In this document: in pieces, positions 1 to 27,376 of the stretch
How the letters are laid out: each line of letters starts with the position of its first letter
How positions within the stretch are numbered: position 1 is the stretch's first letter
Program-made: the position numbers and the translations under genes
NCBI GenBank assembly: GCA_016937855.1
Contig: JAFGVU010000045.1
Span: 1 to 64,000, forward strand
Origin: Bacteroidales bacterium
GTDB lineage: Bacteria; Bacteroidota; Bacteroidia; Bacteroidales; ML635J-15
DNA length: 64,000 nucleotides
Reading direction: 5' to 3'
The notes under the pieces: model-generated
What the model was told of the DNA's origin: nothing
Database searches by the model: none
Seen by the model: the letters and a program-made list of their open reading frames with translations, nothing else

Positions 1-3000
1 CAACTGTTGGAGTTCCAAGATCTACACCGCTAGCTGTACATTCGTCAGCGTCAGTATTAACTGCTACAGGAGCAGGACATACTATTGATGGGAGTTCGAT
101 ATCAGTTACAACAACAAGTTGATCACAGGATACCGAATTACCTCCAAAATCAGTAACAGTCCATGTAATGGTTGTTGTTCCAAGTGGATAAGGATCAGTC
201 AAAGCTAACATATCATCTCTAACACCTGTTACAGTGTTCACACCACAATTATCATTAACTATTGGAGTTCCAACAACAACATTTGTTGCTTCACAATTTC
301 CGGCATCGCTGTTTACATCAACATCACCGGGACAAGTAATTGTTGGATCCACAAAATCCTGAATAACAACTGTAATATCGGCATTATCACAATTTGTTGG
401 GTTTATTACTTCACAAATTTCATAAGATAAATAGTAAGTTCCAACAGCAAGACCGGCTGGGATATTTACATCTCCGTTAGCAGATATTGATGCACCAACT
501 ATTCCTCCGTCATTTGTAAGCGTTATAATTACATCGGCCGGGTTCACTGCTGCAGCGTCAAGCAAGTCGTTGTCAAGAACATTTCCGGCAACACCACCTA
601 ATTCGCAATCAACGGCAGACGAAGTATAATCATCATCAACAGCAGAAATGCTTGCATGAAGCACTGTTACAAAGACTTGAGCGTCATCACAATTAGAAGG
701 ATTTAAAACTTCACAAATTTGATAAGTCAAGTAATAGGTTCCGGCTGGAGTATTTGGTAATACATCAACAGTTCCATCAGGATTTAAAACAAGATATCCG
801 TTATCTTCAGGAATTGTTTCGGTTAGAATCACTTCTGCAGGATTAACTGGGTTTCCATTTAGTAAATCATTGTCAAAAACGATTACAACAGCTGTTTCAC
901 CAGTATGACCATTTACATCATAAGCATAATCGTTATTTGCAATAATACTTGTTGCTGCAACAGTAATAATTACCAAAGCATCATCACAATTTGTTGGATT
1001 TAGAATCTCGCAAATCTCGTAAGTAAGTGTATATGTTCCAGCAGGCGTGCCAGGCGCAATATCAACCGAGCCATCAGGATTTAAAGTAAGGCTTCCGGTT
1101 GGGTCGGCAACTGTTTCTGCAAGAGTTACATCGGCAGGGTTAACAGGATCTCCACTTAATAAATCATTATCAAAAACATTTAGAATATTTGTCTGACCAT
1201 CGTAACCATTTACTCCACCTTGAATATCATCGTTAGCGATAATTTCACCGGGAATTACATTTACAGTTACAATAGCGTCATCACAATTTGTTGGATTAAG
1301 TATTTCGCAGATTTCGTAGGTCAGAGTATAAGTTCCAGCTGGAGTTCCGGGAGCAACATCAACACTACCATCAGGATTTAAAGTAAGAGTTCCGGTTGGG
1401 TCTGTAACTGTCTCTGTAAGAGTTACATCCGCAGGATTAACAGAATCTCCATTTAACAAATCGTTTTCAAATACATTTAGTACGCCAACAACACCAGCCG
1501 TTCCGTCAACATCGTTAGCAGTATCATCATTTGCAATAATTGATGTTGCAATAACAGTTATAATAACTTGAGCATCATCACAATTTGTTGGATTGAGGAT
1601 TTCACAAATTTCGTAAGTTAATGTATATGTGCCAGCTGGAGTTCTGGGAGCAACATCAACACTACCATCAGGATTTAAAGTAAGAGTTCCGGTTGGATCT
1701 GCAACTGTCTCTGTTAAAGTTACATCTGATGGATCAACTGGATTTCCGTTTAATAAATCATTGTCAAAAACATTTAATACACTTATGTGCCCATCAAAGC
1801 CATTAACACCACCTGCGATATCATCGTTTGCAATAATCTCAGGAGCTTCAACAGTAATTGTAACGATAGCATCATCACAATTTGTTGGATTAGCAATTTC
1901 ACAAATTTGGTAAGTCAATGTATAAGTTCCAGCAGGAGTATTTGGTGCTAAATCAACGGATCCGTCAGAATTTAAAGTAAGGCTTCCGGTTGGGTCAGCA
2001 ACTGTCTCTGTTAGAATTAAATCAGCAGGGACTACCAACGAACCATTTAATAAATCATTATCAAAAACATTAAGAATATTTACAGCACCATCAAATCCGT
2101 TAATCGGACCGGCAGCATCGTCATTCGCAATAATAACATTTATAGGGTCGGTATTTTCATCGTCCTCATTATTATCATTATCAGGATCAAACTGATCCAT
2201 ATCTGTAATAGTTGATACATTAAGATAATTTCCACCAGGCACATTTACAGTTGCAGTAATTGTAAGAACCTCATTTCCGGGGAAAGTTACAGTTCCAACT
2301 TCCCACAATCCTGTTCCAGAATCGAATGTTCCTGTTGTAACAGTGTGCGAAACGTAAGTATATCCGGTTGGGAGTTGATCAACAACCTCAACATTTGTTG
2401 CTTCGCTTGGACCGTTATTAGTTAAAGTAATTGTAAAAGTTACATCATCACCAACATAAGGAGTGCTATTGTTTACAGTTTTATTAATACTCAAATCAGC
2501 TTGAGCCTGAATCGGAGTAACAAAAGTTGATTCATCATTACTTGGATCAGGGTCTGTAACATCATCACTGTGAATGTATGCGGTATTCACTAGATTTCCG
2601 GTAGCTTCGGGAACAACCGAGCCTCTAATTACAAGCACACATCTACCACCGGCGATAATAGTTCCGAGATTTCCAGTTCCAGTCCAGCTTCCATAATTAG
2701 CCTGACATCTTGATCCTTCCCAATCAATTACAAAACCGGGAAGAATATCATCAATAATTACATTTGTTGCATCACTAGGTCCGTCATTCCAATAAAATAA
2801 TACATAATAAATATCATCCCCCGCAGTAATTTCAACAGGATTTATGACTATATCATTTGGATTCCCAAAAATTTGCGCTTCGGTTAATGGCAGAATAGAT
2901 GGATCTATTTGAATTTTAACAATGTTTAAATCAGCGACAACTTCAACAACAGTAATAACAGTAGATGTATTATTTGTCAAGTCAGAATCCGGGGTATTTG

Positions 3001-24744: not shown

Positions 24745-25356
24745 ATGTTTTCAGGTATAGTAGAAGAAACCGCAAAAATCGTAAAAATCGAGCAAGACAA
24801 AACAAATTTTCACTATTATCTTAACTGTTCGTTTGCCGACCAGTTAAAAATAGATCAAAGTGTTGCACATAACGGAGTTTGTCTCACGGTTGTTGATGTT
24901 GACAAAAACGAAAAAGTTTACAAAGTAACTGCTGTTCAGGAAACACTCGACAAGTCAAACCTGGGCTTACTAAATGTTGGCGATAAAGTAAACATCGAAC
25001 GCAGTATGACAATGGACAAACTTCTCGATGGACACATGGTTCAAGGTCATGTTGATCAAACAGCTGTGTGCACTGAGATTAAAGAAGTGGACGGAAGCTG
25101 GTATTTTACTTTTCAATATGATAAATCGAAAGGAAATATTACTGTAGAAAAAGGATCTGTTTCTGTAAATGGTGTTAGTTTAACAGTGGTTAATTCCAGA
25201 GATGATAAATTCTCAGTAGCAATTATTCCTTTTACATACGATGTTACAAATTTTCATACCTTTAAATTAGGTAGCGTTGTAAATCTCGAATTCGATATTA
25301 TTGGCAAATACATTCAAAAAATAATGGCTGGATATCTTGAGAATTTGCAAAAATAA
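24745..25356 (+). CDS. ribE: Riboflavin synthase alpha subunit
   Basis: MFSGIVEE, NGVCLTVV, GHMVQGHVDQT, VNGVSLTVV duplicated lumazine-binding fold. Confidence 0.96.
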   Translation: MFSGIVEETAKIVKIEQDKTNFHYYLNCSFADQLKIDQSVAHNGVCLTVVDVDKNEKVYKVTAVQETLDKSNLGLLNVGDKVNIERSMTMDKLLDGHMVQGHVDQTAVCTEIKEVDGSWYFTFQYDKSKGNITVEKGSVSVNGVSLTVVNSRDDKFSVAIIPFTYDVTNFHTFKLGSVVNLEFDIIGKYIQKIMAGYLENLQK

Positions 25357-25496
25357 AATTCAAAAATTCAAAATCCAAAATTCTAAATCCTAAAATCTAA
25401 AACCTAAATTCAAAAATTCAAAATCCAAAATTCTAAATCCTAAAATCTAAAACCTAAATTCAAAAATTCAAAATCCAAAATTCTAAACTCAAAACT
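25357..25496. repeat. 50-bp tandem repeat, about 2.8 copies, with sub-periodic aaattctaaatcc-type units
   Basis: 'caaaaattcaaaatccaaaattctaaa' starts at 25361, 25411 and 25461 (exact 50-bp period). Confidence 0.92.
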
Positions 25497-25595
25497 ATAA
25501 ATTCTAAACTATAAACACTAAACACTCATAACTTTAGGCACTCAAGGCACTTTAAAAACTCAAAACTCTATACACTCATAACTAAAAATATAAGA

Positions 25596-25976
25596 ATGGA
25601 ATTTAACGAGCCAAATGTGATATATAACTTAGAAGAAAGGACATTACAATTTGCGAAAAGAGTAAGGGCCTTTACAAAAAAACTTCCAAGGAGTATTGAA
25701 AATATTGAAGATATTAAGCAACTCACAAAAGCATCAGGCTCGCAAGGAGCAAACTATATAGAAGCAAATGAAAGCATAAGTAAAAAAGACTTTGTTTACA
25801 GAATAAAAATAAGCAGAAAAGAAGCAAAAGAAAGTGGTTTCTTCCTTAAACTAGTTGACACAAATAATGATGTTGAATTAGAAAATGAGAGGCAATCATT
25901 GATTCAGGAAGCAGTTGAATTAACAAAAATATTCGGTTCGATAGTTACTAAAACCGAACGAAATTTAATCCAATAA
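25596..25976 (+). CDS. Four helix bundle protein (23S rRNA intervening-sequence-protein-like)
   Basis: 126 aa; YNLEERTLQFAKRVRAFTKKLP..., QGANYIEANESISKKDFVYRIKISRKEAKESGFFLKL typical of the family. Confidence 0.9.
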   Translation: MEFNEPNVIYNLEERTLQFAKRVRAFTKKLPRSIENIEDIKQLTKASGSQGANYIEANESISKKDFVYRIKISRKEAKESGFFLKLVDTNNDVELENERQSLIQEAVELTKIFGSIVTKTERNLIQ

Positions 25977-26031
25977 CTTTAATCACAGAATGTCTGGAAA
26001 GTTTCACATAATTTTACATACTTTTGATTAT

Positions 26032-26064
26032 TGTTTAGAATTTTGAGTTTAGAATTTTGAATTT
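26032..26064. repeat. Inverted copy of the low-complexity repeat (aaattcaaaattctaaactcaaaattctaaac on minus strand)
   Basis: Reverse complement matches the 25457-25512 sequence (aaattcaaaatccaaaattctaaactcaaaactataaattctaaac). Confidence 0.8.
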
Positions 26065-27376
26065 AAAAAAACATATTACCAACGTTAGAGCCCTGCAGTT
26101 CTTTCAGATATTTCGATTCGGAGTATTATTATTAATTAGTATTATTTTTACTAAATCCGATTTGGGTATTGGTCAGATCGGAGTTTACGAAACTTTCTTA
26201 TTAATTGCAGGTGCTGTTAGTTTCTTTTGGATTGGAGGAATGTTGCAATCGTTATTAAGTATATCAGAAAACAACAAGAGTTTTGGAACAGAAAAAAACT
26301 CTCCGGTTTTCTTTAATACCTTTTTACTATTTACGATTTTTAGCGCATTTGCGGCAATTGTAGTATATGTCATGCAGCCGGTTTTTGCCGACATGTTTAG
26401 CCTAAACGGACATCAAATACCTTACATGAAAATTTTATTCATGTATATTATTGTCTCAGGCCCTGTAAATTTGATTGAGTATATCTATTTATTGCGGAAT
26501 AAGAGTTTAAATATTCTATTATACGGCATATTAACATTTGGAGCTCAACTTTTTTGTGTAACCGTACCAATACTTTTAGGTTACGATCTTGGATACGGCC
26601 TATACGGACTGGTACTTATTAATATTATCCGATTTATCTGGCTAGTTATCATTGTTTTTAAATACTCTCGAATACAATTCTCCTTTGAGTACATAAAAGA
26701 ATATTTAATATTATCGACACCATTGGTTTTAAGCATATTAATAAGTGGAAGCGCTCAATACATAGATAGCTTCATAATATCATACAAATACGACGAAGCA
26801 ACTTTTGCTGTTTTCAGATACGGAGCAAGAGAACTCCCTTTTATTGTATTACTCATATCTGCATTTGGAAATGCAATGACTCCCAGATTTTCGAACCCAT
26901 CAAATATAAATTCTGCCAGTACTGAATTAAAAAGCGGGACAAAGCGCCTGATGCATTTTTTATTCCCAACATCTATCCTCTTTATTTTAACAAGTAAATA
27001 CCTTTATCCTATAGTTTTTAGTCCGGAATTTGGCGAAAGTGCTATAATATTTAACATCTATATTCTGATAGTTGTAACGCGGTTTGTCTTTGCCAGAATA
27101 ATACTAATTGGCCTTAAAAAAACAAAAACCATATTTTATTCTTCGATAATAGAAATCGTTCTTAATGTTGCTTTAAGCTTATTGTTTATTCAGTATTGGG
27201 GAATAGCCGGAGTAGCATACGCAACAGTAGTTTCCTACATTATTGAAAAGCTATACCTTGTAATTGTTTTATCAAAAAAATACAAAATCGACTTAATACA
27301 ATATTTAGACATAAAAGTTTATCTAATTTATTCAACAATTTTGATTTTAGCATTTATTTTAAGCATATTTCTTTAA
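26057..27376 (+). CDS. Oligosaccharide flippase family protein, probable TTG start inside the repeat
   Basis: 439 aa multi-TM; in-frame TAG at 26036; the only start candidate before TM1 is TTG 26057. Confidence 0.85.
   Translation: MNLKKHITNVRALQFFQIFRFGVLLLISIIFTKSDLGIGQIGVYETFLLIAGAVSFFWIGGMLQSLLSISENNKSFGTEKNSPVFFNTFLLFTIFSAFAAIVVYVMQPVFADMFSLNGHQIPYMKILFMYIIVSGPVNLIEYIYLLRNKSLNILLYGILTFGAQLFCVTVPILLGYDLGYGLYGLVLINIIRFIWLVIIVFKYSRIQFSFEYIKEYLILSTPLVLSILISGSAQYIDSFIISYKYDEATFAVFRYGARELPFIVLLISAFGNAMTPRFSNPSNINSASTELKSGTKRLMHFLFPTSILFILTSKYLYPIVFSPEFGESAIIFNIYILIVVTRFVFARIILIGLKKTKTIFYSSIIEIVLNVALSLLFIQYWGIAGVAYATVVSYIIEKLYLVIVLSKKYKIDLIQYLDIKVYLIYSTILILAFILSIFL

What the first reader, a model, noticed from the sequence alone, without database searches (positions are those of the whole stretch)
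25357..26064. Four-helix-bundle (IVP-like) gene flanked by inverted low-complexity repeats: candidate mobile cassette
The 126-aa four-helix-bundle ORF is preceded by a 50-bp tandem repeat rich in aaattctaaatcc-like words and followed by a single copy of the same sequence in inverted orientation (attgtttagaattttgagtttagaattttgaattt). This family is known from intervening sequences in 23S rRNA and from DGR accessory proteins. Paired inverted flanks around a stand-alone copy, with no recombinase, look like the ends of a transposable or recombinogenic unit.
Basis: partly seen in the sequence, partly recalled or inferred. Interest (0 to 1): 0.7.

Follow-up and report, generated by a model that had tools for sequence, protein, structure and literature searches.

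The report
Small mobile element with heptamer ends
A gene for a small ring-forming helical protein sits between two mirror-image runs of a roughly seven-letter DNA word; comparison with many other bacteria shows that such gene-plus-words units are mobile elements that slip between neighbouring genes, and they may explain many of the seven-letter repeats scattered through bacterial genomes.

Summary
The pattern is general. Of 97 four-helix-bundle (PF05635-type) genes in 61 related genomes, about 35-40% per flank have short-period arrays (control intergenic 1%), usually inverted between flanks, with a different word at most loci. The same architecture recurs in Patescibacteria, Clostridia, Verrucomicrobia and Cyanobacteria. 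The ribE-flippase interval lacks the gene in every other congener that could be read across; closely related cyanobacterial plasmids give clean filled/empty pairs, two with 4-bp direct duplications. Arms travel with the element but change in concert at one locus. Heptads often carry TAG, giving stop codons in all frames, and the element sits at stop/start junctions. Word-only arrays elsewhere mostly match the word of a resident element and were not seen in gene-less genomes. Best reading: a compact mobile element, the free-standing equivalent of the 23S rRNA intervening sequence. No recombinase is encoded; how it moves is unknown. It may account for part of the intergenic heptamer repeats whose role published surveys left open.

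The parts
25356..25529 (.). Left arm: degenerate heptad array (AAATTCT-type word), with an internal 50-nt superunit repeated 2.6 times; starts at the last base of the ribE stop codon
25530..25595 (.). Inner part of the left flank with decayed words (AAACTCAAAACTCTATACACTCATAACT) and the leader of the ORF
   Evidence: (family D2)
25596..25976 (+). Four-helix-bundle (23S_rRNA_IVP / S23) protein, 126 aa
26033..26065 (.). Right arm: the same word inverted (GTTTAGAATTTTGAGTTTAGAATTTTGAATTT), running into the TTG start codon (26057) of the flippase gene
   Evidence: the last bases (TTGAA.TTAAAAAA) are native to the flippase start in relatives
25468..26066 (+). Predicted RNA closing stem: about 25468-25544 pairs with about 25987-26066, with the ORF in the loop
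   Evidence: MFE -108.6, shuffles -96.2, z -2.3; coordinates derived from the duplex prediction
24745..25356 (+). Upstream host gene ribE (riboflavin synthase)
26057..27376 (+). Downstream host gene, MurJ/polysaccharide flippase-like
   Evidence: orthologues in all 25 other congeners

Best explanation
About 25356-26065 is a compact mobile element: one four-helix-bundle ORF between inverted arrays of degenerate heptads, inserted between the ribE stop codon and the flippase start codon and probably transcribed by read-through. Shown here for the family: it inserts as a unit, mostly at stop/start junctions; it can be flanked by a 4-bp direct duplication; its words move with it, differ in copy number between copies, and differ together on both arms between species; inward-reading TAG heptads can supply stop codons in all frames; arm-only copies exist. 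Inferred: the protein, an Avd-like pentamer by homology, recognises its own arms as DNA or as an RNA stem and recruits a host or trans-acting enzyme for insertion; template switching and slippage in the inverted arms homogenise the word; arm-only copies are moved in trans.
For: Flank statistics against control intergenics and swapped flanks; empty orthologous sites in the genus; base-resolved filled/empty pairs in cyanobacterial plasmids with TAAT and TTCT duplications; element homology of 419 bp that stops at the insertion boundaries; TAG enrichment and 7-nt TAG spacing; upstream neighbour co-directional in 87 of 88; concerted arm change; word travels with related proteins to other loci; purifying selection, median dN/dS 0.18; arm-only derivatives; word-only arrays mostly match a resident element and none found in gene-less genomes; Coxiella rRNA IVS has the same ORF family, terminal inverted repeats and tandem heptamers (PMC4990558).
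Against: No catalytic gene in the element and no partner enzyme identified; only two clear 4-bp duplications, both from related elements; 24 of 95 loci match better in direct than in inverted orientation; more than half of flanks have no array above threshold; the window copy's own ends are unresolved; action of the protein on its arms is untested.
Confidence: 0.72

Rival explanations
1. The element is a MITE-like passenger: an unidentified transposase acting in trans recognises the arms, and the four-helix-bundle protein has another role, for example RNA binding or autoregulation.
For: No recombinase in the element; arm-only copies are also found at gene junctions; 4-bp duplications are typical of several transposases (general knowledge).
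Against: Arms are not conserved in sequence between elements, which is unusual for ends read by one transposase; the ORF is kept under purifying selection; arrays were not found in gene-less genomes.
Confidence: 0.18
2. The arrays are host low-complexity sequence made by replication slippage, and the genes merely tend to lie next to it.
For: Short repeats expand by slippage; solo arrays exist; copy number differs between copies.
Against: Arm plus ORF plus arm is absent as a unit at empty sites; arms match each other within a locus far above swapped controls; homology between elements includes the arms and stops at the boundaries.
Confidence: 0.05
3. It is a retroelement or DGR-derived unit that uses a reverse transcriptase in trans.
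For: The fold matches Avd and canonical members match the PHROG Avd family; preference for transcribed junctions.
Against: Genomes with many copies have no PF00078 match: G012 with 11, G024 with 7, G009 with 6 copies; antisense insertions exist.
Confidence: 0.04
4. It is a host gene with a beneficial role (regulation or defence) whose arms are regulatory.
For: Purifying selection; long stay at some loci across species; copies inside CRISPR operons.
Against: Patchy presence and decayed copies; unrelated neighbours; no PADLOC hit; antisense insertions.
Confidence: 0.05

Closest known systems
23S rRNA intervening sequence (IVS) with S23p ORF, e.g. Coxiella burnetii (PMC4990558)
   Same: Same protein family; terminal inverted repeats that put the ORF in the loop of a stem; tandem heptamers of variable number before the ORF; patchy distribution; compact size
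   Different: Free-standing between protein genes instead of in 23S rRNA; arms built of longer word arrays; words dispersed in the genome; RNase III processing not tested here
REPIN-RAYT systems
   Same: A gene flanked by inverted repeats, with many gene-less copies of its repeat in the same genome
   Different: Four-helix-bundle protein instead of a Y1 tyrosine transposase; the repeat is a changing heptad array instead of a fixed palindrome
[quoted passage not shown]
   Same: Inverted ends, no recombinase, short direct duplications, gene-less forms
   Different: Carries a conserved ORF; ends have no common sequence and are tandem words
Avd proteins of diversity-generating retroelements
   Same: Same fold (4DWL matched); family similarity of canonical members
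   Different: No reverse transcriptase, template repeat or variable repeat needed at these loci
Intergenic heptamer repeats: cyanobacterial STRRs, TAACTGA arrays (PMC4679880), SPADE heptamers (PMC6344855)
   Same: Degenerate 7-nt tandem arrays in intergenic regions; MacGregor noted stop codons in the repeat and suggested that a repeat-binding protein could be the mobile element
   Different: Those papers did not link the repeats to this gene; here a specific family is linked by insertion sites and word matching. TAACTGA arrays themselves were not tested

Membership tests
PF05635 / TIGR02436 four helix bundle protein | Profile score above the curated cut-off | tested here: met
   42 bits against 33.8; 61.6 against 24
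PF05635 / TIGR02436 four helix bundle protein | Four-helix-bundle fold like 2GSC/2RLD | tested here: met
   Model pLDDT 92.2 with four helices; 2RLD TM 0.73-0.75
PF05635 / TIGR02436 four helix bundle protein | Homopentameric ring | not testable with these tools
   Known for Xcc0516, 2GSC (PMC4990558); not modelled here
23S rRNA IVS | Inserted in a 23S rRNA helix | tested here: not met
   Lies between ribE and a flippase gene
23S rRNA IVS | Terminal inverted repeats that close a stem around the ORF | tested here: met
   Complementary arms; predicted closing stem; own arms pair better than swapped arms
23S rRNA IVS | Excised from the transcript by RNase III | not testable with these tools
   Needs an experiment
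REPIN-RAYT | Gene encodes a Y1 (HUH) transposase | tested here: not met
   Only PF05635 matches
REPIN-RAYT | Dispersed repeats match the flanks of the resident gene | tested here: met
   7-8 of 10 blindly found arrays match an element of the same genome
MITE / DDE transposon | Target-site duplication of fixed length | tested here: inconclusive
   4 bp at two sites of related elements; not resolvable at the window site
MITE / DDE transposon | Encodes its own recombinase (autonomous transposon) | tested here: not met
   The four-helix-bundle ORF is the only gene between the arms
Diversity-generating retroelement (Avd) | Linked reverse transcriptase and template/variable repeats | tested here: not met
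   No PF00078 match in this contig and none in several copy-rich genomes

The most novel reading that the evidence does not exclude
A widespread class of mobile element that carries no known recombinase: a ring-shaped four-helix-bundle protein acts on its own heptad arrays, inserts at stop/start junctions with host enzymes, rewrites both arms in concert, and is the source of a large share of the intergenic heptamer repeats of bacteria, with rRNA IVSs and perhaps DGR Avd as specialised relatives.
Probability: 0.35. Interest if true: 0.93.

Novelty: new variant of a known kind. Interest (0 to 1): 0.78.

Why it matters
The SPADE survey of 7,006 genomes found tandem heptamers the most abundant tandem repeats in intergenic regions and said there was 'no clear clue' to their function (PMC6344855); MacGregor 2015 raised the possibility of a mobile repeat-binding protein (PMC4679880); the role and origin of rRNA IVSs are also open (PMC4990558). 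The element described here would link the three and make them testable: a named gene, defined ends, filled and empty sites, and a possible reason for the period of 7 (TAG every 7 nt closes all three frames). It also offers a simpler reading of the association of 23S rRNA IVP with CRISPR modules (PMC10910872): the element is inserted inside cas operons. If the protein does act on its own arms, it would be an unusual and very small kind of mobile element.

Tried and rejected
RT partnership: rejected as a general requirement. Words copied from the target at each insertion (suggested by TTTAGAATTTTGAACTT in the G019 empty site, and by TAGAAAC before glyS in empty relatives): not supported as the rule, because two related elements at unrelated sites share their word and words follow protein similarity at different loci; a local contribution is not excluded. 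Strict protein-word specificity: not seen below about 60% protein identity. Universal hairpin: rejected, 24 of 95 loci match better in direct orientation. Known RNA family: nothing relevant. Phage cargo: no hit in the phage collection, 3 IMG/VR contigs. Defence gene: no PADLOC match. Literature searches found no description of free-standing copies with heptad arms, but only open-licence PMC papers are held, so a prior description elsewhere is possible.

Full report
Observation. The ORF at 25596-25976 is a four-helix-bundle protein. A model from 41 homologues has four helices at pLDDT 92 and matches the S23-family structures 2RLD and 2GSC and, more weakly, the DGR protein Avd. Upstream, 25356-25529 is a degenerate 7-nt tandem array with a 50-nt superunit; downstream, 26033-26065 is the same word inverted. 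The array begins at the last base of the ribE stop codon, and the right block runs into the TTG start of the flippase gene.

Empty sites of this copy. The flippase gene was found in all 26 genomes of the genus. In 23 of the other 25, ribE lies directly upstream on the same contig, and none has a four-helix-bundle ORF between the two; most intervals are only a few tens of bases long. G025 has no ribE on that locus. The closest relative, G021, cannot be read across: both contigs end inside an array of another word, GGGTTTC, so an insertion there, with or without a gene, cannot be excluded. G003 has inverted words without a gene in the same interval. The window copy is therefore an insertion of limited age, but its exact ends cannot be read.

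The pattern is general. The own genome has three members above the cut-off, each with its own inverted word: AAATTCT here, GCATGGA in L001, GAGTTCG in L002. Among 97 genes in related genomes, 35% of upstream and 40% of downstream flanks reach a short-period score that 1% of control intergenics reach; period 7 dominates, then 8. Inverted similarity between the two flanks of a gene reaches 14 in 36% of loci, against 1% when flanks are swapped between loci. The upstream neighbour is co-directional in 87 of 88 cases (control 72%). Some loci are orthologous and so not independent. In 80 genome loci from Patescibacteria, Clostridia, Verrucomicrobia, Omnitrophota and others, plus 3 viral contigs, 46% are inverted against 2% when swapped, and 23 of 25 arrays have period 7.

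Why seven. In that second set, TAG is 4.6 times commoner upstream than downstream of the gene, and TAG-TAG distances peak at 7, 14, 21 and 28. The gene upstream of the element ends in TAG in 57% of cases against 22% in the background. Because 7 is 1 modulo 3, three heptads with TAG close all three reading frames, and because the arms are inverted this holds from either side. An insertion at or just before a stop codon then still ends the upstream protein, and the downstream arm ends close to the next start codon. That selection for this property set the period is inference.

Insertion at base resolution. In Trichormus variabilis plasmid C and Scytonema plasmid 1 the element sits between two genes that are 13 bp apart in Nostoc carneum: AAAAAG-TAAT-[AAATCAG...CTTTG]-TAAT-TAAC, against AAAAAG-TAAT-TAAC. 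In Nostoc ATCC 53789 pNsp_a and C052 pC052_D a relative sits at another junction; in pNsp_a it reads AGGTTCT-[AAATCAG...GGA]-TTCT-AG, against AGGTTCT-AGG when empty, and the host stop changes from TAG to TAA. The two elements are 78% identical over 419 bp and the homology stops at these boundaries. Further filled/empty pairs are nrdA-nrdB (antisense), a transporter pair (antisense), an integrase operon, a second junction of the same Nostoc operon and cas10-cmr3. Nostoc C052 pC052_E has a decayed copy at the first site. At another junction of the Nostoc operon lie arm-only derivatives of roughly 150 bp, one nested in another.

Arms evolve in concert. Where the same locus holds orthologous genes 76-87% identical in different species, the two arms match each other within a genome but in most pairs no longer match the arms of the other species. 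Repeated insertion at one site by related elements is an alternative that is not excluded. Known quasi-palindrome template switching plus slippage could do this (general knowledge, inference). At different loci, words are shared when proteins are more than about 60-70% identical, so words travel with the element and then drift. The ORF is under purifying selection, median dN/dS 0.18.

Dispersed words. Regions from gene-less genomes had no 7/8-nt arrays in 310 kb; gene-bearing genomes had 11 in 800 kb. The sample is small and not corrected for phylogeny. Of ten such arrays found blindly away from the gene, seven or eight match an element of the same genome better than nearly all of 38 other genomes. 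In the own genome at least ten arrays share the window's word. This resembles REPINs and their RAYT gene, with a different protein and changing words.

Relation to known things. The rRNA IVS of Coxiella has the same protein family, terminal inverted repeats with the ORF in the loop, and variable tandem heptamers before the ORF (PMC4990558). The window copy folds likewise: the end of the left array pairs with the right arm, and arms pair better with their own partner than with swapped ones. I therefore read the free-standing units as the mRNA-borne form of the same kind of element. Association of IVP genes with CRISPR modules (PMC10910872) may simply reflect insertions in cas operons. MacGregor 2015 already suggested a mobile repeat-binding protein for TAACTGA arrays, and the SPADE survey left the heptamers unexplained.

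Limits. No catalytic component is known, target duplications are few, about a quarter of loci have direct rather than inverted arms, the window copy's ends are unresolved, and open-literature searching cannot prove novelty.

Noticed in passing
L252 1480-1848, L254 1501-1860, L299 1492-1848: Copies of the element lie inside CRISPR operons (cas6-cas4 in two cyanobacteria, cas10-cmr3 in Picosynechococcus PCC 7003); the cas10 C-terminus appears rewritten by the arm.
   Followed up: partly
L035, L086, L106 and L139, downstream of the four-helix-bundle gene: The downstream arm lies inside the 5' coding region of the next gene (signal-peptide region in L035/L086/L106), read in frame.
   Followed up: no
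L056 1-260 and L162 1-300 (G021): Array of GGGTTTC words with interspersed palindromic blocks of about 40 nt (ACTCGCTTCGCTCGTGAGCTCGCCTGCGGCTCGG) at the same ribE-flippase interval; contigs break there.
   Followed up: partly
L004 1801-1870 and 2283-2350: A sub-threshold four-helix-bundle hit of the own genome has no heptads but is followed by a near-identical repeat of about 70 nt on one side.
   Followed up: no
L262 2318-2562: The cas6-cas4 gap of Dolichospermum UHCC 0315A holds a different inverted-repeat sequence (GTAGGTTGGGTTG...CAACCCAACCTAC) that also supplies a TAG stop codon.
   Followed up: no
L279 and L282, upstream of glyS: A near-perfect palindrome (TATTTGTAGAGGCGCAATGCATTGCGCCTCCTACAAATA) occupies the junction where relatives carry the element.
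   Followed up: no
window 959-2103: Tandem repeat of 297 bp, 3.9 copies, probably a repetitive surface-protein gene.
   Followed up: no
L164 and L165: The same element with identical flanks occurs in a 'Bacteroidota' and a 'Patescibacteria' MAG, probably a binning error rather than transfer.
   Followed up: no
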